Below are positions 15,726-26,086 of a DNA stretch of 45,944 nucleotides, piece after piece. Made by a program: the position numbers and the translations under genes. Each line of letters begins with the position of its first letter. Positions within the stretch are counted from its first letter, which is position 1. The stretch spans positions 1-45,944 of the forward strand of contig JAFXZO010000081.1 in the NCBI GenBank assembly GCA_017541205.1, in the 5' to 3' direction. The stretch comes from Clostridia bacterium (GTDB taxonomy: Bacteria; Bacillota; Clostridia; Christensenellales; Aristaeellaceae). Below the pieces are notes generated by a model. That model was not told the DNA's origin. It made no database searches and saw only the letters and a list, made by a program, of their open reading frames with translations.

Positions 15726-15754
15726 TTGATCCGCTTTGCGCCCTATGGTATACT
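15726..15754 (+). promoter_or_regulatory. Sigma-A promoter of rtcB
   Basis: TTGATC at 15726-15731, 17 bp, TATACT at 15749-15754 with an extended TGG. The expected transcription start is near 15761, about 40 bases ahead of the rtcB ATG. Confidence 0.75.
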
Positions 15755-15779
15755 ACGGATACATAATATGCGCAAAGCG
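15732..15779. promoter_or_regulatory. 10-bp inverted repeat bracketing the rtcB -10 box (candidate operator)
   Basis: CGCTTTGCGC at 15732-15741 is the perfect reverse complement of GCGCAAAGCG at 15770-15779. One arm fills the -35/-10 spacer and the other lies just past the expected start, so the two arms cannot form an RNA hairpin in the mRNA. This suggests a DNA-binding site for a dimeric regulator. The WYL proteins encoded downstream are the obvious candidates, by inference only. Confidence 0.55.
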
Positions 15780-15799
15780 CCCGAAAACGGAGAAACAGC

Positions 15800-17050
15800 A
15801 TGATCTTAGTTGAAGGAACGTATAACACGGCCAAGGTATATACCGACACCTGCGACGAAGCGACCCTGGCCCAGATCCGAAACCTGATGAACCAGCGCTG
15901 CGTCGAAAACGCCAGGATCCGCATCATGCCCGACTGCCACGCCGGGGCCGGCTGCGTGATCGGCACCACCATGACCATCCGGGACAAGGTGATCCCCAAC
16001 CTCGTGGGCGTGGACATCGGCTGCGGCATGCTGGCGACCCGGCTCAAGGAAAAGCGCATCGATCTGCCCAAGTTCGACAGCGTCACCCAGGCGGAGATCC
16101 CGGCGGGAATGAAGATGCGCTCAGCGCCAAGCAGCCAGGCCGCCGCCTTATCCGCCCAGGCGCTCGCCTGCTATCACAAGCCCAACTGCCGCGTATCGCC
16201 GGAGGTGTTTTCCCTGAGCCTGGGCACGCTGGGCGGCGGCAACCATTTCTGGGAATTGGACCGGGACGAGGAAGACAATATCTGGCTGGTGGTGCATACC
16301 GGCTCCCGCCGCAGCGGCAAGGACGTGGCGGAGTATTATCAGCGCGCCGCGTACGAATCGCTCAATTCCGTGGGCGAAAAACGGAAGGAAGCAATGGCCG
16401 CCCGGAAAAACGCCTTCATCCAAAAACTGCGCGAGGAAGGCCGTGAAAAGGAAATCAACAAACTGCTGCCCGCATGGCAGGCCTCGCTTCCGGAAGCAGA
16501 AATCTCCGTGCCCTACGAGGTCTCCTGGTGCGAAGGCGCGCTCTTTGACGATTATATCCACGATATGCGCATCATGCAGCAGTACGCGGCGCTGAACCGG
16601 CGCATCATCACCGAAACGATCCTGAAAAGCTGCCGCCTGCACGCCGAGGAGCAGTTCGAGACCGTGCATAACTATATCGATCTGGAGCAAATGATCCTGC
16701 GCAAAGGCTCCGTTTCCGCCAGGGCAGGCCAGCGCCTGCTGATCCCCATCAACATGCGGGACGGCGCGCTGATCTGCGAAGGGAAGGGCAACCCCGATTG
16801 GAACGAGTCCGCGCCGCACGGGGCAGGCCGCCTCATGTCCCGCGCCGAGGCCCGCTCCTCCATCTCCATGAAGGATTATAAAAACGCCATGAAGGGCATC
16901 TATACCTCCTGCGTGAACAAGGGCACGCTGGATGAATCGCCCTTCGCTTACAAGCCCATCGAGGAGATCGTCGCGAACATCGAGCCCACCGCGCGGATCC
17001 TCTCCCGCCTCAAGCCCATCTACAATTTCAAAGCCGGAGACGAGGACTGA
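15800..17050 (+). CDS. rtcB: RtcB family RNA-splicing/repair ligase
   Basis: The 416-residue protein has the RtcB active-site series: PDCHAGAGCVIGTT, VGVDIGCGM (Mn-binding Asp and Cys), SLGTLGGGNHF, VVHTGSR, HNYI, RKGSVSA and NPDWNESAPHGAGRLMSR, where the last His is the residue that becomes guanylylated. RtcB joins 2',3'-cyclic-phosphate or 3'-phosphate ends to 5'-OH ends, the ends left by ribotoxins and anticodon nucleases. It is shorter than the roughly 480-residue archaeal/metazoan form and fits the bacterial RtcB2-type group. No archease or rtcA gene is in the window. SD GGAG lies seven bases before the ATG. The WYL gene starts five bases after the stop, so the two are co-translated. Confidence 0.95.
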   Translation: MILVEGTYNTAKVYTDTCDEATLAQIRNLMNQRCVENARIRIMPDCHAGAGCVIGTTMTIRDKVIPNLVGVDIGCGMLATRLKEKRIDLPKFDSVTQAEIPAGMKMRSAPSSQAAALSAQALACYHKPNCRVSPEVFSLSLGTLGGGNHFWELDRDEEDNIWLVVHTGSRRSGKDVAEYYQRAAYESLNSVGEKRKEAMAARKNAFIQKLREEGREKEINKLLPAWQASLPEAEISVPYEVSWCEGALFDDYIHDMRIMQQYAALNRRIITETILKSCRLHAEEQFETVHNYIDLEQMILRKGSVSARAGQRLLIPINMRDGALICEGKGNPDWNESAPHGAGRLMSRAEARSSISMKDYKNAMKGIYTSCVNKGTLDESPFAYKPIEEIVANIEPTARILSRLKPIYNFKAGDED

Positions 17051-17055
17051 CCGCC

Positions 17056-18270
17056 ATGGCATACAGCGAATTGGTGAAGAACTTTGGCAGCATCCGGGCG
17101 TATCTGCGCTCGTTCTATGTGTACGGCTTCCAGCACCGCAATGAATACGATCTCAAAAGCGCCCGAAGCTACGATAACGAACGCCGCCGGGTGGAAAGCT
17201 GGCTGGGGGATTACATGCGCTTTGGCCAGGATGCAGAAGGGCGGCGGGTATTCCTGTCCGTGGACAGCCGCGCCATCCCGGAAAATCCCCTGTACCGGGC
17301 CTTCCGCGCCAAGTCCTTTACCGATCGGGATATCATGCTGCATTTTCATCTGCTGGATCTATTGTCCTATGGGGAGGGCCTGCCCATTTCCGCCATCATG
17401 GAAGCGCTGACGGACAGACTTTCGGAATTTGAAATGGGCGAGCTCCCGGATGAATCCACCGTGCGCAAAAAGCTCTCGGAATACTGCGCGCTGGGCCTCA
17501 TCCGAAAAGAAAAGCGCGGCAGGGAAACCTGCTACGCCTGCTCCCGGGATGAGACGGACCTCAAAACCTGGGACGCGGCCGCCGCGTTTTTTTCCGAAGC
17601 CGCGCCGCTCGGCGTGGTCGGCTCCTATCTGCGGGACAGGCTGGATGATCCCTTTCCCTCCTTTCGTTTCAAGCATCATTATATCCTGAACGCCCTGGAC
17701 AGCGAGATCCTGGCCGGCCTGTTTGCGGCCATGGCGGAAAACCGGCCGGTTTCCTTTTTCTCCCGCGGGCAATGGATGGCGGCGCTGCCGCTCAAAATCT
17801 ATATCGGCGCGCAGACCGGGCGGCAGTATCTGCTTTCGTGGTCGCCCCGGCATCAGCGGTTCTCCTTTCACCGGATCGATCTGATGGAAAAAGTCAAAAT
17901 GGAGGAGGCCATCCCGCTGCCCGAATCCCTGTCCCGAAGCATGGAAAACTATTGCAGCCACGCCTGGGGCGTTACCAGCAACAATTTCGACGCGCTGACC
18001 CACGTGGAAATGACCGTGCGGATCGAACCGGGCGAGGACCACATTCTCTCGCGCTTAAAGCGCGAAAAGCGCTGCGGAGAGATCACGCAGGCGGACGAAA
18101 CCCACTGGCGTTTTTCCGCCGATCTGTATGAAGCGCCCGAGATCCTGCCCTTCCTGCGCAGCTTTATCGGCAGGATCACCGCGCTCAAGAGCTCGGACCC
18201 GGCGCTGACCGAGCGCTTCTTTACGGACCTGAAGGCATTGAACGCCCTGTACGGATCCGATCCGGAATGA
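17056..18270 (+). CDS. WYL-domain transcriptional regulator (first of two)
   Basis: The 404-residue protein has a winged-helix-like region at about residues 95-165 (LSYGEGLPISAIMEALTD, then STVRKKLSEYCALGLIRK) and a WYL domain at about 205-300, with YLLSW in place of the WYL core and FSFHRIDLM following. A C-terminal extension covers about 310-400. WYL domains are proposed to sense nucleic-acid or nucleotide ligands and often control defence and RNA-repair genes. It begins five bases after rtcB with GAGGA as SD, so it is made together with the ligase. It probably regulates this locus in response to damaged RNA (inference). Confidence 0.85.
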   Translation: MAYSELVKNFGSIRAYLRSFYVYGFQHRNEYDLKSARSYDNERRRVESWLGDYMRFGQDAEGRRVFLSVDSRAIPENPLYRAFRAKSFTDRDIMLHFHLLDLLSYGEGLPISAIMEALTDRLSEFEMGELPDESTVRKKLSEYCALGLIRKEKRGRETCYACSRDETDLKTWDAAAAFFSEAAPLGVVGSYLRDRLDDPFPSFRFKHHYILNALDSEILAGLFAAMAENRPVSFFSRGQWMAALPLKIYIGAQTGRQYLLSWSPRHQRFSFHRIDLMEKVKMEEAIPLPESLSRSMENYCSHAWGVTSNNFDALTHVEMTVRIEPGEDHILSRLKREKRCGEITQADETHWRFSADLYEAPEILPFLRSFIGRITALKSSDPALTERFFTDLKALNALYGSDPE

Positions 18271-18337
18271 TGCGCCCGCGCCTTCGCTTTTCACGAAGGA
18301 CGATCCCTTCCTAAAAGCACACCGGAGGGAGACCGCC

Positions 18338-19243
18338 ATGCTGTTTCACGAAATCTACGGTTCTTATTATCGGACCACGGCCGCCATCCTGCGCCAGGCC
18401 GCCCGGGGCGGCCTGACCAAGCAGGGCCTCACCGCCCTGATCCGGGAAAAAGCGTTCGGCGAAAGCCTGCTCACGATGCCGGAGGGCCTGCAGGGCGAAA
18501 AATGGCTTCTCATGCGCAGCGATCTGACCAGCACGCTCGCAAACGAGCCCGCCATGCCCCTGACCACGCTGGAAAAGCGCTGGATGAAGGCCATGCTGCT
18601 CGACCCGCGCATGCAGCTGTTTTCGCCCGACGCCTCCGGCCTGGAGGACGTAAAGCCGCTGTTCACCCCGGACAGGATCGTGTACTATGACCGCTACACG
18701 GACGGCGATCCGTACGCCGATCCGGCCTATATCGCCCATTTCCGCACGATCCTGAGCGCGATGCGGGAGGGCCATACGCTGCATCTGAGCTACGAAACCA
18801 GCCGGGGCAACCGCTTTCGGCTGTCGGTCGCGCCGCGCTATCTGGAATATTCCGAAAAGGACGACCGCTTTCGGCTCATCGCGGACGGGCGGAAGCGGCG
18901 GTGGACCGTCAACCTCTGCCGCATCGCGGATTGCGCCCCGGCCTATACGGATGTGGAAATGCCCTTGTGGCCGCCCAAGATGGAGAGCGTGACGTTTGAA
19001 GTGGAAAACCGGCGGAACGCCATGCACCGCGTGCTGATGCACTTTTCGCATCTGGAAAAGGAAACCAAGCGCCTGGACGAGCGCCATTATCGGGTGACGC
19101 TGAAATACGACCGGCAAGACGAAACGGAAATGCTCATCCGCATCCTGGCCTTCGGCCCGGCCATCCGGGTGACCGAGCCGCAGCGCTTCATCGATCTGCT
19201 CAAAGAGCGCGTCGCAAAGCAAACGCTTTTGACGCCCGAATAA
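18338..19243 (+). CDS. WYL-domain protein (second of two)
   Basis: The 301-residue protein lacks a clear helix-turn-helix. Residues about 145-210 form the WYL domain (REGHTLHLSYETSRGNRFRL, FRLIADGRKRRWTVNLCRI), and a C-terminal alpha/beta part ends in FGPAIRVTEPQRFIDLLKERV. CGGAGGGAG precedes the ATG. The 67-base gap from the first WYL gene contains a small hairpin (CCTTCG/CGAAGG near 18285-18301) without a T-run, so read-through is likely. It may form a heteromeric regulator with the first WYL protein (inference). Confidence 0.85.
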   Translation: MLFHEIYGSYYRTTAAILRQAARGGLTKQGLTALIREKAFGESLLTMPEGLQGEKWLLMRSDLTSTLANEPAMPLTTLEKRWMKAMLLDPRMQLFSPDASGLEDVKPLFTPDRIVYYDRYTDGDPYADPAYIAHFRTILSAMREGHTLHLSYETSRGNRFRLSVAPRYLEYSEKDDRFRLIADGRKRRWTVNLCRIADCAPAYTDVEMPLWPPKMESVTFEVENRRNAMHRVLMHFSHLEKETKRLDERHYRVTLKYDRQDETEMLIRILAFGPAIRVTEPQRFIDLLKERVAKQTLLTPE

Positions 19244-19283
19244 AAAAACGGTGGGAAGCCGCCGCATCCATACGCCGCAAAGG

Positions 19284-19310
19284 ACGGAAAAAATAATTCC
19301 GTTCTTTTTT
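19284..19310 (+). terminator. Intrinsic terminator ending the rtcB-WYL-WYL operon
   Basis: ACGGAA (19284-19289) pairs with TTCCGT (19297-19302), followed by a run of T to 19310. It separates the protein operon from the tRNA-like array, which therefore needs its own promoter. Confidence 0.7.
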
Positions 19311-19325
19311 ATGCTCGCACCTTTT

Positions 19326-19359
19326 TTTCCGGGAACTATTTCCGGGAATGCGGTATAGT
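19326..19359 (+). promoter_or_regulatory. Candidate regulated promoter of the tRNA-like array, with twin TTTCCGGGAA sites
   Basis: TTTCCGGGAA occurs twice in direct orientation, at 19326-19335 and 19339-19348, 13 bp apart. It is followed by a -10-like TATAGT at 19354-19359. No good -35 box sits at the right distance; the repeats occupy that place, as expected for an activator-dependent promoter. An 8-base match (TTTCCGGG, reverse strand) lies at 15703-15710 ahead of rtcB. Caution: TTTCCGGGAA also occurs at 34150-34159 in an unrelated promoter. Confidence 0.45.
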
Positions 19360-19433
19360 AAGCTCACCCGGAAGGGAAAAGCAGAAAGCGGCCGATCCGG
19401 GCGATGGGGGAAAACCCGTCCGGGCCGCGCGAC

Positions 19434-19506
19434 GGCCCCTTGGTCCAATGGATGAAGACACGGGATTTTCAATCCCGCGATGCGGGTTCGATTCCCGCAG
19501 GGGTTA
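19434..19506 (+). tRNA. tRNA-Glu-like (anticodon UUC), first element of the array
   Basis: A full cloverleaf can be drawn. Acceptor GGCCCCT pairs with AGGGGTT (the first two pairs are G-U), discriminator A. The D-stem is GTC/GAC and the loop has GG. Anticodon stem CGGGA/TCCCG carries loop TTTTCAA, giving anticodon UUC (Glu). The T-arm is GCGGG-TTCGATT-CCCGC. No CCA is encoded. It closely resembles Firmicutes tRNA-Glu, but two terminal G-U pairs weaken the acceptor end. It could be a functional tRNA or a decoy. Confidence 0.82.
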
Positions 19507-19514
19507 TTGAAAAA

Positions 19515-19619
19515 AAGGCACGCACAGCAAATGCATTGCGAACAATACGTTTCAGGTATTTCGGAGCGGGTTCGACTCCCGCATAAGCGCGGCTGCATCC
19601 AGCAAAAACAACGTGCCTT
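19515..19619 (+). ncRNA. tRNA-like Y-RNA-type RNA, copy 1 (Glu-like UUC anticodon arm)
   Basis: The ends close with AAGGCACG (19515-19522) and CGTGCCTT (19612-19619), an 8-bp perfect helix. Inside lie a small D-arm-like hairpin (GCAA/TTGC), an anticodon-like arm AATAC-GTTTCAG-GTATT whose loop presents UUC, a 5-nt variable region and a perfect T-arm GCGGG-TTCGACT-CCCGC. About 29 extra bases then precede the 3' strand of the closing helix, so it is not a normal tRNA. Bacterial Y RNAs (YrlA) likewise combine a closed-end stem bound by Ro/TROVE protein with a tRNA-like module, and a TROVE-like gene follows. It shares its first 16 bases and its T-arm with copy 2 at 19786-19887. Confidence 0.7.
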
Positions 19620-19625
19620 GTATCT

Positions 19626-19700
19626 GGTCTCTTCGTCTAAACAGCAGGACACAGGATTCTCAATCCTGGAATACGGGTTCAAGTCCCGCAGAGGCTGCCA
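19626..19700 (+). tRNA. tRNA-Glu-like (anticodon CUC), CCA encoded
   Basis: Acceptor GGTCTCT pairs with AGAGGCT (two G-U pairs), discriminator G, then encoded CCA at 19698-19700, the only array member with one. Anticodon stem CAGGA/TCCTG is perfect with loop TTCTCAA, giving CUC (Glu). The D-loop (AAACAGCA) lacks the conserved G18-G19 pair, and the outermost T-stem pair is an A-C mismatch (ACGGG/CCCGC). These flaws make ordinary function in translation doubtful. Confidence 0.78.
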
Positions 19701-19701
19701 T

Positions 19702-19774
19702 GCATCTGTAACTCAATGGGCAGAGTAACGGTCCCTTAAACCGTGAGCTGCAGGTTCGATCCCTGCCAGGTGCA
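19702..19774 (+). tRNA. tRNA-Lys-like (anticodon CUU)
   Basis: Acceptor GCATCTG/CAGGTGC (one U-G pair), discriminator A, U8-A9, D-stem ACTC/GAGT, anticodon stem ACGGT/ACCGT with loop CCCTTAA, giving anticodon CUU. T-arm GCAGG-TTCGATC-CCTGC. Position 33, almost always U in tRNAs, is C here, which should disturb the anticodon U-turn. No CCA is encoded. It starts two bases after the CCA of the previous element and is a close paralogue of the UUU element at 19972-20044. Confidence 0.8.
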
Positions 19775-19785
19775 TTCTTCAATCA

Positions 19786-19887
19786 AAGGCACGCACAGCA
19801 ATCATCATGCAGATACCTTTTAAGTATTACGGAGCGGGTTCGACTCCCGCACAAGCGCGGCCGCTTCCAGCAGAAAAAACGTGCCTT
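19786..19887 (+). ncRNA. tRNA-like Y-RNA-type RNA, copy 2 (Lys-like UUU anticodon arm)
   Basis: Same plan as copy 1: closing helix AAGGCACG (19786-19793) with CGTGCCTT (19880-19887), an identical T-arm GCGGG-TTCGACT-CCCGC, and the same AAGCGCGGC segment followed by TCCAGCA. The anticodon-like arm is GATAC-CTTTTAA-GTATT. Its 7-base loop is identical to that of the neighbouring tRNA-Lys(UUU)-like gene, whereas copy 1 shows UUC. So the scaffold is conserved while the loop is switched from a Glu to a Lys type. The D-arm-like hairpin is weaker here (GCA/TGC). Confidence 0.7.
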
Positions 19888-19895
19888 GTCCCTTT

Positions 19896-19966
19896 GACCT
19901 GGTAGTTCAATGGCAGAACGCCGGTTTGTCGAACCGGGAGCGTGGGTCCGATTCCCATCCAGGCCG
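19896..19966 (+). tRNA. tRNA-Asp-like (anticodon GUC)
   Basis: Acceptor GACCTGG/CCAGGCC with an A2-C71 mismatch, discriminator G as in tRNA-Asp. D-stem GTTC/GAAC with GG in the loop, anticodon stem CCGGT/ACCGG and loop TTGTCGA, giving GUC (Asp). The T-loop reads TCCGATT instead of TTCGATT, so the conserved base that becomes pseudouridine-55 is C. No CCA is encoded. It is a good cloverleaf with two unusual substitutions. Confidence 0.78.
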
Positions 19967-19971
19967 CTCAT

Positions 19972-20044
19972 GCATCTGTAACTCAGTTGGAAGAGTAACG
20001 GCCTTTTAAGCCATGAGGCGCAGGTTCGATCCCTGTCAGGTGCA
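19972..20044 (+). tRNA. tRNA-Lys-like (anticodon UUU)
   Basis: Acceptor GCATCTG/CAGGTGC, D-stem ACTC/GAGT with GG in the loop, anticodon loop CTTTTAA on stem ACGGC/GCCAT (one C-A mismatch), and T-arm GCAGG-TTCGATC-CCTGT. The anticodon is UUU (Lys). No CCA is encoded. It ends 37 bases before the DUF2828 gene start, so the array and that gene probably share a transcript. Confidence 0.8.
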
Positions 20045-20081
20045 TCGCAACCCCATTTTATCCGGAAAGGAGAGATTTTTC

Positions 20082-21533
20082 ATGCTGGACCATTTGCTGC
20101 TTCACGCAAACAAGACCCGGACCGAGAACGGCGCGGCGACCTATTTTTCCGCGGGCTCCTATTGCCTGGATCTGTTTGCATCCATCGGCGCGCTGCGCCA
20201 TCAGACCGATACCGAGATCGAGACCCGTTTCCTTCGGGCGTACGCGGAGAATCCTGATCTGGCCATGAAGATTCTCTTCTATGCCCGCGACGTTCGGGGC
20301 GGCCTGGGCGAGCGCCGGGTGTTCCGCACCGTGCTCAAGTACCTTTCGCGGTGCGAGAAGGGCTCCCTTGTGCGCAACCTGCCCTATATCGCGGAGTACG
20401 GCCGCTGGGACGACGTGGCTGCCCTCCTGGACACCCCGGCCCGCGCGGAGGCGGAGGCGCTGCTGCGCAAGCAGTTCCTTGCCGACATGGACGCGCTATC
20501 CCGCGGCGAGCCGGTTTCGCTGCTGGGCAAGTGGCTGCCGTCCGTGAACGCCTCCAACGCCGAGACCATCCGCCTGGCCAAGCAGCTTGCCCGCGCCTTT
20601 GGCATGACCGACGGCGCGTACCGCAAGGCGCTCTCCCTTCTCCGCGCGCAGATCCGCATCCTGGAGAACCATCTGCGCCGGCGGGACTATACCTTCGACT
20701 ACGCCAAGCAGCCTTCCAAGGCCATGTTCAAGTACCGCCGTGCGTTCATGCGCAACGATGCGGCGCGGTATACCGATTTCATGGCGCAGGTGAAGGCCGG
20801 CAAGGCCAACGTGCATACCGGCGCCCTCATGCCTTACGAGATCGTGGAGGCCGCCTACGGCGCGGACGAGAAGGAGCGCGCTTCCCTGGACATGTCCTGG
20901 ACCGCTCTGGAGGATTTCACCAAGGGCGAGAACGCCCTGGTGGTGGCCGACGGCTCCGGCTCCATGTATTGGTGCCGCAAGCCGCAGCCTGCCGCCGTCG
21001 CGCAGTCCCTGGCGATCTACTTCGCCGAGCGCTGCAAGGGCGCGTTCCAAGGCCATTTCATCACCTTTTCCATGCATCCCCGGCTGGTAGAGATCAAGGG
21101 CCGCGACATCGTGGAGAAGGTACGCTACTGCCGCACCTTCAACGAGTGCGCAAACACTGACTTGCAGGCGGTTTTCGCGCTGATCCTCGAGACCGCCGTG
21201 GAGCACCGTCTGCCGCAGAAGGAGCTGCCTTCCACCCTCTACATCGTTTCCGACATGGAGTTCGACCGCTGCGCCGGCAACGCTTCCATGACCAACTTTG
21301 AGCAGGCGAAGGCTCTGTATCAGGCGCATGGCTACCGTCTGCCCCGGGTGGTATTCTGGAACGTATGCGCGCGCAGCGAGCAGCAGCCCGTCAAGATGAA
21401 CGAGAAGGGCGTCGCGCTGGTGTCCGGCTTTACCGCGCGCATCTTCTCCCAAATCATGGAGGGCGATATGGACCCCTATCGTACCATGATGAAGGTCGTC
21501 GGCGCGGAGCGCTATGCGCCCATCGCGGCATAA
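20082..21533 (+). CDS. DUF2828/TROVE-like protein with C-terminal vWA domain
   Basis: The 483-residue protein starts with the DUF2828 pattern (NGAATYFSAGSYCLDLF, then MKILFYARDVRGGLGERR and LLGKWLPSVNASNAET). It ends in a von Willebrand A domain with an intact MIDAS start, VVADGSGSMYW, then TFSMHPRLVEIKG, STLYIVSDMEFDR and VVFWNVC. TROVE/Ro60 proteins, which share the helical-repeat plus vWA layout, bind Y RNAs and misfolded RNAs; that role is inferred here from the adjacent RNAs. The ATG at 20082 has SD AAAGGAG; an in-frame extension upstream would run through the tRNA-Lys-like gene and is rejected. Codon use is extreme: by hand count all 31 Glu are GAG and all 24 Lys are AAG, and CCT, GCT and CGT are commoner than in neighbouring genes. 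Confidence 0.85.
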   Translation: MLDHLLLHANKTRTENGAATYFSAGSYCLDLFASIGALRHQTDTEIETRFLRAYAENPDLAMKILFYARDVRGGLGERRVFRTVLKYLSRCEKGSLVRNLPYIAEYGRWDDVAALLDTPARAEAEALLRKQFLADMDALSRGEPVSLLGKWLPSVNASNAETIRLAKQLARAFGMTDGAYRKALSLLRAQIRILENHLRRRDYTFDYAKQPSKAMFKYRRAFMRNDAARYTDFMAQVKAGKANVHTGALMPYEIVEAAYGADEKERASLDMSWTALEDFTKGENALVVADGSGSMYWCRKPQPAAVAQSLAIYFAERCKGAFQGHFITFSMHPRLVEIKGRDIVEKVRYCRTFNECANTDLQAVFALILETAVEHRLPQKELPSTLYIVSDMEFDRCAGNASMTNFEQAKALYQAHGYRLPRVVFWNVCARSEQQPVKMNEKGVALVSGFTARIFSQIMEGDMDPYRTMMKVVGAERYAPIAA

Positions 21534-21541
21534 TACTTTTT

Positions 21542-21603
21542 GAGGCTGCCTCCTCTCGAGGCAGTCTTTTTGCGCTGTTTTCTGCCTGTCGGCAGACTTT
21601 TTT
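21542..21603 (+). terminator. Two consecutive intrinsic terminators ending the RNA-repair island
   Basis: First: GGCTGCCTC (21544-21552) with GAGGCAGTC (21558-21566), then five T. Second: TCTGCC (21581-21586) with GGCAGA (21591-21596), then CTTTTTT. A double terminator insulates the array and vWA gene from the following genes. Confidence 0.8.
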
Positions 21604-22698: not shown

Positions 22699-23502
22699 AT
22701 GAAAAAAAACCTGCTGCTTGCCATCCTGGTTTTAGCCGTCTGCCTGCTGTCCGGCTGCGGGCCGACGGAATCAAAACCGGAGGAATTCACGATCGAGGAC
22801 GGCGTCGTTACCGGCTATAAAGGCAACGCTTCGGAAATCGTGATCCCCGACGGCGTGACCGCGATCGGGAAGGAAGCGTTCAAAGGAAAGGATATCAATA
22901 GCGTCTCGATCCCCGACAGCTGCACGCTGATCGGGAGCCGCGCCTTCTACGGCTGCAAAAAGCTGACCCGCGTGGTACTGCCGGACAACGGCATCTATCT
23001 GGGGGCGGAGTGCTTTTTCAATTGCACGGCGATCAAAGAAATCAACATTCCCGAATCGGCAGATTTTTCGCATACGCCCTTCAGCTATACCGCCGATTTC
23101 CACAGCATCGTGCCCAGCCCCGGCTGGTTCCTGATCCCCACCTCGCCCGTTCCCACCAATTCCATCCATCTGCGCAGCATGCATAAGACCGATACAGGCC
23201 TGCTGCGGCTGACCTTCATCCAGGCCTCGGGCAATAAAATCCCCGTTACCTTCACCGCGGACGGCATCGTTCAAATCAGCCAGAAAGCAGGCTTCACGGT
23301 CACGCTGAACATGCCCGACGGCAGTACGCTTTCCCCGGCGGGCAGCGAGCTTACGCTGGATATGGAAAACAGGCAGTATGTTTTCACCTTCGACTTTGAT
23401 ACCGAGGTCCGCCCCGCTCAAATCGTATGCGACAGCGCCCAAAAGACCGTCGTGCTCAACGGCGCCTCATGGGACGAATACCAGTCCTGGGAAAGCCATT
23501 AA
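22699..23502 (+). CDS. BspA-like leucine-rich-repeat lipoprotein
   Basis: The 267-residue product has a lipoprotein signal peptide (LLSGC, Cys about residue 20). LRR_5/BspA repeats at about residues 30-120 include EIVIPDGVTAIGKEAFKG and SIPDSCTLIGSRAFYGC. The C-terminal 140 residues are beta-rich and not LRR. It should be anchored to the outer face of the membrane. BspA-type repeats are often adhesins; the partner is unknown. SD GGAAAGGAGAG precedes the ATG. It belongs to the same surface-protein run as the gene at 23885. Confidence 0.8.
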   Translation: MKKNLLLAILVLAVCLLSGCGPTESKPEEFTIEDGVVTGYKGNASEIVIPDGVTAIGKEAFKGKDINSVSIPDSCTLIGSRAFYGCKKLTRVVLPDNGIYLGAECFFNCTAIKEINIPESADFSHTPFSYTADFHSIVPSPGWFLIPTSPVPTNSIHLRSMHKTDTGLLRLTFIQASGNKIPVTFTADGIVQISQKAGFTVTLNMPDGSTLSPAGSELTLDMENRQYVFTFDFDTEVRPAQIVCDSAQKTVVLNGASWDEYQSWESH

Positions 23503-23564
23503 ACAAGATCGTGATTGACGCAAAAAAAAACAAACAAAAACGAGAAACAGAAGGAGGCGCGGCG

Positions 23565-23850
23565 ATGGGCATTTCCTGCTTATTCGGACACAAATACAAT
23601 TATACCTACTTTTCAAAAACGCAATGCCGGAGCGAACATCAACGCCACTGACATGTACGGCAGGACCGCCGCGCAGTCCGCCGCCCGCAAAGGCCTGGGC
23701 GATATGGTGAGCTATCTGCAGTCCCGCGGCGGCAGATAAATTCCGCCCGGCTGAAGGCCCTTGAAAACGTGGAGAAGAAGGCGCCGCGCTTCATCGCCTG
23801 GGCGGAACAGACCAGCGACCCCATCGGGATGGGCGTGCGCTGAGCCCCGC
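23565..23850 (+). pseudogene. Gene remnants including an ankyrin-repeat fragment
   Basis: A good SD (GGAGG) and ATG at 23565 open a frame MGISCLFGHKYNYTYF that is soon lost. In another frame, bases about 23628-23739 encode one ankyrin-type unit (GANINATDMYGRTAAQSAAR) with its own stop. Bases about 23760-23843 then encode ENVEKKAPRFIAWAEQTSD up to a stop, in a third context and without a start. This looks like a deletion that joined pieces of two or more genes. No intact product is expected. Confidence 0.6.
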
Positions 23851-23884
23851 ACGCATCCATTCCGATAAAAGGAGGAAACACGAT

Positions 23885-26086
23885 ATGAAAAAGTTCTGCA
23901 TCGTCATGGCCCTGCTGCTGACCCTGCTGGCGGGCTGCGCGGCGGCGGAAACCCTCCAGGAGGGCAAAGAAGCCCTGAAAGCCGCAAAGACGCTGGACGA
24001 ACAGCTTGCGATCCTCAACCGCATCGCGGACGAGCACGCCGATGAACTGGAAAACGGCGGCTGGGATATCCTGCTGGGCGTTCAGGCCGGGCCGGGCCTG
24101 CCCGAGGGGCTGCTCCCGGACGATTGGGAGAAAAGCGAGTTTACCCGCGTTGACGGCTTTCCTGCCGAGCTTCGGGAGCACAAATTCATCGTGCTCAACG
24201 GCCCGACGCTGGCGGGCAGCTGGTTTTGCCGCCTGCCGGAGCAAATGCGCGCCGCCTCGGTGGAGGAAGCCGAATATGTGATGATGATCCATGACATTTT
24301 GATGCCGTCCGGCTATAGCTATACCCCGCCCGCCACCAGCTACCACCGGGATTACCTCGCCTATGCGCTCAATATCAGGACCGGCGAGATCACCCGCTTC
24401 TGGGGATACCGCTGCAACGCGAAAAGATCCGGCAGGCGGGACCAGCTGAACGGCGATCAGCTCACGGCCGAGGAGATCTGGAACCTGGTGCGCTCCCAGA
24501 TCTGGGGCCAGACGCGGTATGAATTTGGGGACGACGCCGCGTTCCTCATCGGCTTCAGTGGGAAAAACGCCTTTGTGATGGGCTATGAGGGCACGCCGAC
24601 AAAAGTGGATATTCCATCCGAGGTGGAGGGCCATCCCGTAACGGAAATCGGGAAAAGCTGCTTTGCGAAATGCGACAGTCTGGAAAGCCTCACGCTTCCC
24701 GCCACGATCCGCAAGATCGAAGAAAAGGCGTTTTATGGATGCCCGAACCTCCGGTCCGTCCTCCTGCCGGAAGGGCTGGAAAGCATCGGCACGGAGGCGT
24801 TCCGCTTTCTCAGCTCTCTAACCGAGATCGAGATCCCTTCCTCCGTATCCTCCATTGGCAAAAACGCTTTCATGGTGTGCAATAAGCTCTCCCGGGCCGT
24901 GATCCGGCCGGGCGTCGCGAAGCTTGGGGAAGACATGTTTTCCAACGACGAGAACCTGGCGCTGGTCTATCTCCCCGGAGAAATCAAGGGCCTGGAAAAC
25001 GCCGCCATCGAATCCGGCGCCGTGATTTGGGCGCCGGCCGCTTCGCAGACGCTGGACGACGCCAAGCGCCTGGGCTATTCCGCCGTGGCATGCGACGGCG
25101 GCCCGCAGGATATGCCTTCCTTCCGCTTCGTTACGGAAGGGGATTTTGAATATCGCATTTTGGACGGAGAAGCAGCGCTGATCGATTACCTGGGCACCCA
25201 TGTCATGATCGACGTACCTGAGACGGCGGACGGCCTGCCCGTTACCCGGATCCTGTCCAGCTCGCTTAGGCAGAAAATGAGCGTCAACAGCGTGACCCTG
25301 CCAAAGAGCGTGACCTTTATCAGCCGCTCCGCCATCGTGCCCGCCAGCGGCCAGCGCGCCTTTGACATATTCATCCCCAATCCCGCCTGCGAAATCGAGG
25401 AAGACGGCATTAAGCCGTACAACACGAACGACATCAGTTATTCCACGACCCTCTATGCCCCGGAGGGCAGCCTGGCGCAGCGCTACGCGAACGATTATAA
25501 CCAGCCGGGCCGCCTTGTGTTTGAAGCCTGGGGCGAGGGCGTGGACCCGGACGCCGCGGCCATCCGATGCGCCCTTCCCCTGGCGGAAAAGGTGCTCGCC
25601 GGCGCCGGCGCGGTCTGGGAGGCCAGCGATCAGAAGGAATACGCCTGGCTCAGCCGTATCCCCGGCTATAACGCGCAAAGCCCGGACGCGGCGGCTGTAC
25701 TGCGCTTTTCCAAGGATCAGTTTGAAACCCTCTCCCTCCTGATGGGCGGGGACGGCAACATCGCCAGGATGTTCGCCACCATCGTCAACACCCAATGGAA
25801 CCTGCCCTACGCCAAGGTCGCAGCCCGGACTGTCCAGACGGAACAGCTCGGTCCCGTGGCCGACGGCTCCTGCGTCGTGATCGCGCTGTGCTACCGCACG
25901 GATATCGTGCTGACGGTCCTGCGCGAGGATGGGTTTGCCCAGGCCGCGCTGGTCTGCTCAAGCCCACAGGTGATAAAGGCCATGACGCCGGAATACGTCA
26001 GCGGCATCGCCGCCCAGTTCGGCATTTCCGGAAGCTGCACGGTCTATCCCCCGGAGGAAATCAGCGCCCTGCTTGCCAAGGAATGA
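23885..26086 (+). CDS. Large BspA-like LRR lipoprotein
   Basis: The 733-residue product starts with a lipoprotein signal (LLTLLAGC, Cys about residue 19). A unique N-terminal domain covers about residues 25-215. BspA/LRR_5 repeats cover about 220-370 (VDIPSEVEGHPVTEIGKSCF, TLPATIRKIEEKAFYGC, EIPSSVSSIGKNAF) and a second, looser set runs to about 540. A non-repeat C-terminal domain of about 180 residues follows. It is a membrane-anchored surface protein of unknown ligand. SD AAAGGAGG precedes the ATG. Confidence 0.82.
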   Translation: MKKFCIVMALLLTLLAGCAAAETLQEGKEALKAAKTLDEQLAILNRIADEHADELENGGWDILLGVQAGPGLPEGLLPDDWEKSEFTRVDGFPAELREHKFIVLNGPTLAGSWFCRLPEQMRAASVEEAEYVMMIHDILMPSGYSYTPPATSYHRDYLAYALNIRTGEITRFWGYRCNAKRSGRRDQLNGDQLTAEEIWNLVRSQIWGQTRYEFGDDAAFLIGFSGKNAFVMGYEGTPTKVDIPSEVEGHPVTEIGKSCFAKCDSLESLTLPATIRKIEEKAFYGCPNLRSVLLPEGLESIGTEAFRFLSSLTEIEIPSSVSSIGKNAFMVCNKLSRAVIRPGVAKLGEDMFSNDENLALVYLPGEIKGLENAAIESGAVIWAPAASQTLDDAKRLGYSAVACDGGPQDMPSFRFVTEGDFEYRILDGEAALIDYLGTHVMIDVPETADGLPVTRILSSSLRQKMSVNSVTLPKSVTFISRSAIVPASGQRAFDIFIPNPACEIEEDGIKPYNTNDISYSTTLYAPEGSLAQRYANDYNQPGRLVFEAWGEGVDPDAAAIRCALPLAEKVLAGAGAVWEASDQKEYAWLSRIPGYNAQSPDAAAVLRFSKDQFETLSLLMGGDGNIARMFATIVNTQWNLPYAKVAARTVQTEQLGPVADGSCVVIALCYRTDIVLTVLREDGFAQAALVCSSPQVIKAMTPEYVSGIAAQFGISGSCTVYPPEEISALLAKE

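What the first reader, a model, noticed from the sequence alone, without database searches (positions are those of the whole stretch)
15726..21603. RNA-repair island: RtcB ligase, two WYL regulators, an array of tRNA mimics and Y-RNA-like RNAs, and a DUF2828/vWA protein
Seen: rtcB, WYL, WYL, terminator, seven tRNA-like RNA genes packed into about 610 bp, then a DUF2828 vWA gene and double terminator. Known: in other bacteria RtcB is linked to Ro/TROVE proteins and Y RNAs with tRNA-like modules, and WYL regulators often control such loci. New here is the RNA component: five tRNA-like genes for Glu(UUC), Glu(CUC), Lys(CUU), Asp(GUC) and Lys(UUU), plus two Y-like RNAs carrying UUC and UUU loops. 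All seven anticodons have U at position 35, and Lys(UUU), Glu(UUC) and Asp(GUC) are known targets of anticodon nucleases (PrrC-, zymocin- and colicin E5-type). Inference: the array supplies decoys, replacements or damage sensors for cleaved tRNAs, RtcB reseals cuts, DUF2828 handles the RNAs, and the WYL proteins sense cut ends.
Basis: partly seen in the sequence, partly recalled or inferred. Interest (0 to 1): 0.95.

Follow-up and report, generated by a model that had tools for sequence, protein, structure and literature searches.

The report
Ro60-like tRNA-mimic RNA repair locus
A gut bacterium carries a conserved gene cluster in which an RNA-mending enzyme and a relative of the human Ro60 protein sit beside a row of small RNAs, some of which imitate the anticodon loops of transfer RNAs; the RNA-plus-protein core also occurs in large phages, which suggests a shared device for coping with damaged transfer RNAs.

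The parts
15800..17050 (+). rtcB, RNA ligase
   Evidence: Pfam PF01139 E 1.4e-61; phrog_1075 tRNA splicing ligase E 1e-128; D72, C75, N148, H149, H166, H290, H340 invariant in 24 aligned locus RtcBs (roles of these residues recalled)
17056..18270 (+). WYL1, putative winged-helix + WYL regulator
   Evidence: 24 of 27 family members match WYL PF13280, 15 of 27 PaaX, at E up to 0.1; the window protein itself none; PADLOC WYL E 3.8e-8
18338..19243 (+). WYL2, WYL + WCX regulator
   Evidence: 24 of 26 members match WCX, 16 of 26 WYL, at E up to 0.1; PADLOC WYL E 4.5e-10
19279..19307 (+). terminator-like hairpin after WYL2, so the array may have its own promoter
   Evidence: pattern scan; the number of such hits is near that in shuffles
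19314..19330 (+). conserved promoter box CTCGCACCTTTTTTTCC upstream of the array
   Evidence: 48 sites (up to 2 mismatches) in the 1.7 kb upstream of DUF2828 in 43 of 68 loci; 27 of 48 lie 54-57 nt before the next scaffold RNA, in the window it is 201 nt because a tRNA-like gene comes first; 17-base core found exactly once in the 3.0 Mb genome
19354..19359 (+). -10-like hexamer TATAGT, 40 nt after the start of the box
   Evidence: sequence; similar spacing seen by eye in relatives; not called as a sigma-70 promoter by the pattern scan, which needs a -35
19434..19506 (+). tRNA-like gene, Glu(UUC) anticodon
   Evidence: Rfam tRNA 61.2 bits; no encoded CCA
19515..19620 (+). scaffold RNA 1: closing stem, ACAGCAA box, hairpin with 7-nt loop GTTTCAG (UUC), T-arm, capped stem
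   Evidence: scan, hairpin search (this loop fails the strict anticodon-loop pattern at its first base), sequence
19626..19697 (+). tRNA-like gene, Glu(CUC) anticodon, followed by CCA
   Evidence: Rfam 47.5 bits, lowest of the genome's 37 tRNA hits
19702..19774 (+). tRNA-like gene, Lys(CUU) anticodon, loop CCCTTAA with C in place of U33, no encoded CCA
   Evidence: Rfam 62.5 bits; loop table
19786..19888 (+). scaffold RNA 2: closing stem, ACAGCAA box, anticodon-loop-like hairpin CTTTTAA (UUU), T-arm, capped stem
   Evidence: scan, hairpin search, sequence
19896..19966 (+). tRNA-like gene, Asp(GUC) anticodon, no encoded CCA
   Evidence: Rfam 58.2 bits
19972..20044 (+). tRNA-like gene, Lys(UUU) anticodon, no encoded CCA
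   Evidence: Rfam 59.2 bits
20082..21533 (+). DUF2828/DUF7788 protein with the Ro60 (helical ring + vWA) fold
21581..21596 (+). terminator-like hairpin after DUF2828
   Evidence: pattern scan

Best explanation
The locus is an inducible RNA-repair system built round a Ro60-type ribonucleoprotein. SHOWN by comparison: DUF2828 is a Ro60-superfamily protein; it is encoded beside a family of small RNAs with one common closing stem and box, which carry exchangeable inserts, a large minority of them tRNA-like (lone anticodon stem-loops, near-complete tRNA bodies, T-arms, or circularly permuted tRNA modules like that of YrlA); rtcB and a pair of WYL regulators are recurrent companions in bacteria; and the arrays have a conserved promoter box that tracks the WYL pair. 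INFERRED: DUF2828 binds the common stem as Ro60 binds Y RNA. The WYL pair, acting like the PafB-PafC heterodimer, switches on the array, DUF2828 and sometimes rtcB after damage. The displayed anticodon loops act as baits or decoys that draw anticodon nucleases away from translating tRNAs, while RtcB reseals cut RNAs with 2',3'-cyclic phosphate and 5'-OH ends. In this lineage the decoy set was enlarged by free-standing mimic tRNAs for Glu, Lys and Asp.
For: Scaffold RNAs: 166 in 102,303 nt upstream of DUF2828 in 64 of 68 loci (67 loci + window), 23 in the other 856,492 nt (plus strand), one on the minus strand of the same gaps, about 1 in base-shuffled gaps. Of 164 ACAGCAA boxes in these gaps, 144 have their own 7-bp partner within 150 nt, against a mean of 2.0 with shuffled arms, 40.8 with arms swapped between RNAs, and 6 of 78 boxes elsewhere. 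Inserts of 158 RNAs: 40 anticodon-loop-like hairpins vs 1.85, 41 T-arms vs 0, and 7-nt loops specifically enriched (148 vs 31); 62 of 158 RNAs carry one or both, anticodon-type loops in 26 loci and T-arms in 33. YrlA-module matches: L028 E 1.6e-7, L036, L037. Ro60 fold; MIDAS DxSxS in 56 of 56. RNA-protein pairing recurs in phages: 46 RNAs in 44,469 nt upstream of DUF2828 vs 30 in 741,348 nt, in 33 of 64 dereplicated loci (41 of the 46, in 28 loci, have the fuller ACAGCA box), with anticodon-loop hairpins 12 vs 0.7 in shuffles, four CTTTTAA (Lys-UUU) and two CTGTTAA (Asn-GUU). Redundant ordinary tRNAs. Promoter box and its association with the WYL pair, 38 of 44 with vs 10 of 24 without, Fisher p 2e-4. 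tRNA bodies that lie inside the scaffold have mismatched or shortened acceptor stems and no free 3' end, so they are unlikely to serve translation as they stand.
Against: No nuclease, cleavage, expression or binding was measured. No anticodon nuclease was sought beside the locus. 96 of 158 scaffold RNAs show neither a strict anticodon loop nor a T-arm. The five free-standing window tRNA genes fold well and could be aminoacylated; one has an encoded CCA. Between close relatives L021 and L022 the array DNA (1672 of 1731 aligned bases identical) is not less conserved than the DUF2828 gene (1364 of 1446), which does not look like a fast arms race, although one anticodon differs (UCA/CCA). Hughes et al. 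did not detect fragments of YrlA in Salmonella under damage (PMC7790460 passages). Loci without rtcB (30 of 68) and without the WYL pair (24 of 68) exist, partly because contigs end. A DUF2828 paralogue in the same genome has no scaffold RNA.
Confidence: 0.46

Rival explanations
1. Tether model: as in Deinococcus, the Y-like RNAs tether DUF2828 to tRNA-binding enzymes (PNPase, RtcB, modification or processing enzymes); the tRNA-like inserts are handles, and the particle degrades or repairs damaged tRNAs rather than deceiving nucleases.
For: Rsr is tethered to PNPase by Y RNA in D. radiodurans (PMC7790460 and PMC12282133 passages); Ro60 fold; YrlA-like modules; phage DUF2828 genes lie near tRNA genes (39 of 64 dereplicated loci have one or more, 27 three or more). 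Leaves room for the 96 of 158 inserts without an anticodon loop or T-arm.
Against: Does not explain why lone anticodon loops with many different anticodons are displayed.
Confidence: 0.3
2. Sensor model: the mimic RNAs are sacrificial substrates; their cleavage products, with cyclic-phosphate ends, are the ligands of the WYL pair and report nuclease attack.
For: WYL pair and box track each other; PafBC is a WYL heterodimer triggered by single-stranded DNA (PMC11804915, title and abstract start in search listing); the Rtc operon of Salmonella is regulated by damaged tRNAs (PMC7790460, title, abstract start and passages).
Against: Phages carry DUF2828 and the RNAs with no WYL hit in 80 loci, so sensing by WYL cannot be the core function.
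Confidence: 0.12
3. Replacement model: the free-standing array genes are functional, nuclease-resistant spare tRNAs, as in phages that evade tRNA-targeting defences.
For: Five window genes reach 47-62 bits with the tRNA model, with largely intact stems; published precedent of phage tRNAs with altered anticodon loops (PMC10264068, title and abstract start in listing; PMC12409363 passages).
Against: CCA is encoded in 1 of 5 window array genes versus 22 of 32 other tRNA genes of the genome, and Lys-CUU has C33 in 4 of 6 loci while all 32 others have U33. Scaffolded bodies in many relatives have no free acceptor end.
Confidence: 0.1
4. Ordinary tRNA gene cluster that happens to lie between unrelated genes.
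For: ARAGORN and Rfam call five normal-looking tRNAs.
Against: Redundant copies elsewhere, recurring gene order and scaffold RNAs in 64 of 68 loci.
Confidence: 0.02

Closest known systems
rsr-yrlBA-rtcBA operon (Salmonella; RtcR-regulated)
   Same: Ro60-type protein, Y RNA with tRNA-like domain and RtcB encoded together (PMC7790460 passages); the tRNA-like module of YrlA is recognisable in three of the eight loci scanned sensitively.
   Different: DUF2828 branch instead of Rsr; WYL pair instead of RtcR; no RtcA among the ten window genes scanned with Pfam; a different closing stem and box; arrays of up to seven RNAs per scanned interval with varied inserts, including lone anticodon loops.
Ro60 / Rsr (TROVE) proteins
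   Different: Pfam places it in DUF2828+DUF7788, and TROVE is not among the 25 (of 28) listed Pfam matches of 56 members up to E 1; 10-16% identity to the solved Ro60/TROVE structures.
YrlA bacterial Y RNA (Rfam RF02553)
   Same: Circularly permuted tRNA module (T-arm, capped acceptor stem, D-arm) in L028, L036, L037.
   Different: Below the family's gathering score (47.7 at best versus 69); most inserts, including the window's, are of other kinds; closing stem differs.
PafBC WYL heterodimer
   Same: Two adjacent WYL genes and a dedicated promoter box.
   Different: Box sequence and position are its own; heterodimer and ligand not tested.
Phage tRNAs that evade tRNA-cleaving defences (PARIS AriB, retrons)
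   Same: DUF2828 and scaffold RNAs often lie near tRNA genes of phages; loops like Lys-UUU (4), Asn-GUU (2) and one weak Thr-UGU in phage scaffold RNAs correspond to AriB targets (PMC12409363 passages).
   Different: The RNAs here are scaffolded loops, not tRNAs; the other phage loops (such as GCU, GAU, GCA, UAU) do not fit AriB.

Membership tests
Ro60/TROVE superfamily (DUF2828 protein) | helical ring plus vWA fold of Ro60 over the whole chain | tested here: met
Ro60/TROVE superfamily (DUF2828 protein) | sequence-profile homology over the full length | tested here: met
   phrog_850 matches window protein (E 1e-129) and a TROVE protein (E 7e-51) nearly end to end; hhalign with seven TROVE proteins probability 96.8%, E 2e-10, 409 columns. 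With a single TROVE sequence the probability was only 6%
Ro60/TROVE superfamily (DUF2828 protein) | match to Pfam TROVE PF05731 | tested here: inconclusive
   not among the 25 families shown (of 28) for 56 members at E up to 1; vWA_Ro60 PF25045 in 1 of 56, E 0.0017; own genome has no PF05731 match
Ro60/TROVE superfamily (DUF2828 protein) | MIDAS motif DxSxS in the vWA domain | tested here: met
   56 of 56
Ro60/TROVE superfamily (DUF2828 protein) | binds Y RNA | not testable with these tools
   only gene linkage to scaffold RNAs
YrlA Y RNA (RF02553) | score above the Rfam gathering threshold | tested here: not met
   best 47.7 bits versus 69 in the eight loci scanned; no window hit at gathering threshold
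Y RNA (works like) | closing stem with conserved box next to a gene for a Ro60-type protein | tested here: met
   the box itself is not that of known Y RNAs (recalled)
RtcB ligase | RtcB domain with invariant catalytic residues | tested here: met
rsr-yrl-rtcBA repair operon | RtcA cyclase and RtcR regulator in the operon | tested here: not met
   no RtcA or RtcR among the ten window genes scanned; regulators are WYL proteins
PafBC-like WYL pair | two adjacent WYL genes | tested here: met
   44 of 68 loci; WYL/WCX hits
PafBC-like WYL pair | heterodimer that binds single-stranded nucleic acid and activates promoters lacking a -35 | not testable with these tools
   only a conserved box, in 27 of 48 sites 54-57 nt before the next scaffold RNA
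translational tRNA genes (five free-standing window genes) | needed as the genome's only copies of their anticodons | tested here: not met
   Lys-CUU x2, Lys-UUU, Asp-GUC, Glu-UUC, Glu-CUC on other contigs
translational tRNA genes (five free-standing window genes) | U33 and intact tRNA fold | tested here: inconclusive
   cloverleaf fits in all five (one stem mismatch in each of three), U33 in 4 of 5

The most novel reading that the evidence does not exclude
Bacteria and their large phages share a Ro60-type particle loaded with a repertoire of exchangeable anticodon-loop decoys on a constant scaffold. It is an RNA-level immunity (or counter-immunity) against anticodon nucleases whose specificity is set by which loops are displayed, coupled in bacteria to RtcB repair and WYL control.
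Probability: 0.4. Interest if true: 0.95.

Novelty: new variant of a known kind. Interest (0 to 1): 0.87.

Why it matters
It proposes a function for DUF2828, a protein family with relatives in 673 phage records of one collection and in many gut bacteria, and gives it an RNA partner. It defines a family of small RNAs for which Rfam gave only tRNA, tmRNA pieces, sub-threshold YrlA and one chance-level hit in the loci tried. It makes the old question of what tRNA-like modules of bacterial Y RNAs are for directly testable, because here anticodon loops themselves are displayed and varied. If the decoy reading is right, it adds a class of defence and counter-defence against tRNA-cleaving toxins.

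Tried and rejected
Ordinary tRNA cluster: rejected by redundancy, recurring gene order and scaffold RNAs. U35 as a general rule: rejected, relatives show other anticodons. DUF2828 relatives in solved structures by sequence: none at E up to 10; hhalign against one TROVE sequence was weak, so a seven-protein TROVE alignment was made. The own-genome DUF2828 paralogue (C69, 44% identical) has no scaffold RNA in its 20 kb; of 14 short DUF2828 stretches from related genomes scanned (L004-L011, L013-L017, L019), L004, L005 and L011 gave two hits each, L009 one on each strand, and the other ten none, so the pairing is not universal for the family. Covariance model R1 scores the window copies at 33.7 and 39.9 bits, but also gives 32-39 bits to several ordinary tRNAs of the genome, and many of its hits in phage loci may likewise be tRNAs; R1 is therefore not used as evidence, only the stem-and-box tests are. 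I first took the very abundant RNAs of Listeria phage CKA15 (CKA15_059-061) for the scaffold RNAs; the record shows they lie about 0.8 kb further upstream and lack the box, so that paper gives no expression evidence for the scaffold RNAs that I could tie to them. The strict scan misses the P100-type stem variant, so the phage count may be too low; on the other hand 5 of its 46 phage hits lack the full box. Foldseek searches of PDB were not accepted by the busy machine; VIA-align was used. On checking, I found that 96 of 158 RNAs have neither motif and lowered the decoy reading from 0.50 to 0.46 and the novel case from 0.42 to 0.40, raising the tether model from 0.28 to 0.30.


Full report
WHAT IS THERE. 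The window carries, all on +, rtcB (15800-17050), two WYL-type regulators (17056-18270 and 18338-19243), five tRNA-like genes at 19434-20046, two further structured RNAs at 19515-19620 and 19786-19888, and a DUF2828/DUF7788 gene at 20082-21533. A terminator-like hairpin follows WYL2 (19279-19307) and another follows DUF2828 (21581-21596), though such patterns are as common in shuffles. The window is contig C9 of an 85%-complete genome of 3.0 Mb.

NOT THE ONLY COPIES. The genome holds 37 tRNA hits. I took out the 32 outside the array and ARAGORN names among them Lys-CUU (two), Lys-UUU, Asp-GUC, Glu-UUC and Glu-CUC. The array copies differ clearly in sequence from these. CCA is encoded in 1 of 5 array genes and 22 of 32 others; array Lys-CUU has the loop CCCTTAA, with C at position 33, in the window, L021, L022 and L025 but CTCTTAA in L026 and L030; all 32 others have U33 (position names by convention). 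So these are redundant and partly odd tRNAs, though they could still be functional.

CONSERVED NEIGHBOURHOOD. A scan of genome contigs with the DUF2828 protein gave 67 loci, many from ruminant-gut genomes labelled Clostridia, Oscillospiraceae or Lachnospiraceae, also Oscillibacter, Ruminococcus callidus, Enterococcus cecorum, Synergistales and others (labels as in the record titles). Of these 67 plus the window, 44 have both WYL genes, 38 rtcB and 28 both; 14 have neither. Many contigs end near the gene, so these are lower bounds; among the 47 loci of at least 12 kb, 33 have the WYL pair and 29 rtcB. Of 100 genomes searched (the window's own and 99 relatives of genus, family and order) 12, the own included, have a DUF2828 match, several of them only the more distant, 42-44% identical branch.

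A NEW RNA FAMILY. Reading the gaps before DUF2828 (18 of them printed) showed RNAs of one design: AAARRYRC-NN-ACAGCAA, insert, then G-Y-R-Y-Y-UUG-U, closing a stem of 7 bp or more. A scan that asks for ACAGC, a stem of at least 7 bp directly before it and its complement ending in TTG finds 166 in the 102,303 nt upstream of DUF2828, 23 in the other 856,492 nt of the same loci, one on the minus strand of the gaps, and about 1.0 in base-shuffled gaps (5 shuffles); 64 of 68 loci have at least one, at most seven. The four without are L021, L079, L082 and L087; L087 has four downstream of the gene. A test in which the box is chosen without regard to pairing gives 144 of 164 boxes with their own 7-bp partner, 2.0 on average when the arm's letters are shuffled, 40.8 when arms are swapped between RNAs (the stems share a purine/pyrimidine pattern), and 6 of 78 boxes elsewhere. 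Compensatory changes (G-C to A-U at the same pair) are common, with the caution that those RNAs were chosen by pairing and that the loci are related.

WHAT THE INSERTS LOOK LIKE. In 158 non-overlapping RNAs, hairpins of 5 bp or more with loops of exactly 7 nt number 148, against 30.8 in dinucleotide-preserving shuffles, while loops of 4, 5, 6, 8 and 9 nt number 38-65 against 29-32. Anticodon-loop-like loops (Y-U-NNN-R-N, T-loops excluded) number 40 against 1.85 (maximum of 20 shuffles 5), T-loops 41 against 0. Counted by RNA, 39 have the former, 41 the latter, 18 both and 96 of 158 neither; I do not explain the 96. Displayed anticodons include CAU, UUU, CAG, UGA, UCU, UAU and others; some of the 40 are in near relatives. 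Several further loops have A at position 33 (CATTTAA, CAGCTAA, CAGTTAA). Some inserts are nearly whole tRNA bodies whose acceptor stem is shortened or mismatched and fused to the scaffold, as in L029, L032 and L041. Others are circularly permuted: T-arm, capped acceptor stem, D-arm, with the scaffold in place of the anticodon stem. In L028, L036 and L037 these match the Rfam family YrlA (47.7, 43.5, 38.7 and 23.4 bits in L028, best E 1.6e-7; 36.2 in L036; 33.5 and 33.3 in L037), below its gathering score of 69. In the eight loci scanned at this sensitivity the scaffold RNAs otherwise met only tRNA, tmRNA pieces and one chance-level match (Plastid-ycf2, E 0.68); the window was scanned only at gathering thresholds. 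The window's two scaffold RNAs carry an anticodon-type hairpin (UUC with G32; UUU), a T-arm and a capped stem.

PHAGES SHARE THE CORE. A scan of viral contigs found at least 527 DUF2828 relatives, 80 kept; INPHARED has 673 records with a match to one of these phage proteins. After removing near-duplicates, 64 loci remain; 33 have a scaffold-RNA hit in the 700 nt upstream, 46 hits in 44,469 nt against 30 in 741,348 nt, 0.1 in shuffles; 41 of the 46, in 28 loci, have ACAGCA. Listeria phage P100 has three box RNAs upstream with a variant stem (AGGAAGC...GCTTCCTGT) that the scan misses, and an RtcB about 1.3 kb downstream of its DUF2828 gene. Phage inserts also carry anticodon-type loops (12 against 0.7 at 5 bp), four of them CTTTTAA and two CTGTTAA. 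Of the 64 loci, 39 have at least one tRNA gene in the stretch held and 27 at least three. Among the 80, no WYL protein was detected and RtcB in one. KVP40 and Aegeus showed no scaffold RNA in the 8.4 kb read; FADO gave six hits of varied length, one ending just before the gene; the single hit in S13 lies inside the DUF2828 gene and is probably chance.

CONTROL. A box TTCGCAACTTTTTTTCC (up to two mismatches) occurs 48 times in the 1.7 kb upstream of DUF2828 in 43 of 68 loci, 27 of the 48 lying 54-57 nt before the next scaffold RNA, with a TATAAT-like hexamer about 40 nt after its start (by eye), and 10 times elsewhere in the loci, several of these at array starts further upstream or before rtcB. 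The window has it at 19314-19330, 201 nt before its first scaffold RNA, a tRNA-like gene lying between. A 17-base core is found exactly once in the genome (three others at two mismatches; five for the pattern read backwards, so those three are background). Over whole loci 38 of 44 with the WYL pair and 10 of 24 without it have the box (Fisher p 2e-4); relatedness of loci is not corrected for.

MECHANISM. Shown: Ro60-type protein, scaffolded and partly tRNA-like RNAs, recurring rtcB and WYL pair, a dedicated box. Inferred: binding of the stem by DUF2828, control by the WYL pair in the manner of PafBC (titles and abstract starts only), decoy role. The decoy idea was raised for YrlA by Hughes et al., who wrote that its tRNA-like domain might be a competitive inhibitor of the anticodon nuclease (PMC7790460 passages). 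The loops Lys-UUU, Asn-GUU and one weak Thr-UGU seen in phages are among the targets of the PARIS nuclease AriB (PMC12409363 passages), which fits but does not prove it; other phage loops do not fit. The tether model is the main rival, the more so as 96 of 158 inserts show no anticodon loop or T-arm. Evidence against a fast arms race: array DNA of L021/L022 is 96.6% identical, the DUF2828 gene 94.3%.

KNOWN OR NEW. The kind, Ro60 with Y RNA and RtcB, is known. New here as far as I could see are the DUF2828 branch with its own RNA scaffold, arrays that display varied anticodon loops, free-standing mimic tRNAs in this lineage, and WYL control. I found no paper on the bacterial locus: a full-text search for DUF2828 gave four papers, all on plants by title; searches around RtcB, WYL, tRNA-like, Y RNA, Ro60, TROVE, phage and anticodon nuclease listed nothing on it, apart from the CKA15 paper above and a jumbo-phage survey that mentions TROVE proteins in a few phages (PMC7824862 passages). 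Only the listed rows were seen. Burroughs and Aravind 2016 and Chen et al. 2014 were not held, and the 2020 Ro60 review was not looked up, so prior mention there cannot be excluded.

Noticed in passing
G000:C69:7828-9309 (L015, L105): A second DUF2828 gene in the same genome, 44% identical, has no scaffold RNA in the surrounding 20 kb; a solo branch of the family.
   Followed up: partly
L198 3780-4090 (Listeria phage CKA15): The most abundant CKA15 transcripts (CKA15_059 and _060 per PMC12282133) come from a structured stretch without the scaffold box, between two tRNA genes upstream of the Ro-like gene; possibly another unknown phage RNA.
   Followed up: partly
L028 6903-7568: A contig labelled Thermoguttaceae carries three to four permuted-tRNA modules matching YrlA below the gathering score, in or near scaffold RNAs.
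   Followed up: partly
L030 about 5757 and L055 about 4677: The promoter box also stands before rtcB (L030) and between DUF2828 and rtcB (L055), so rtcB may be under the same control.
   Followed up: no
L087 1953-2176: In this locus the scaffold RNAs lie downstream, not upstream, of DUF2828.
   Followed up: no
window 22699-26086: BspA-type leucine-rich repeat proteins follow the locus.
   Followed up: no
L021 7893 and L022 7892: At the same array position two close relatives differ in anticodon, UCA versus CCA; the outermost anticodon-stem position also differs (G-G versus A-A, unpaired in both).
   Followed up: no
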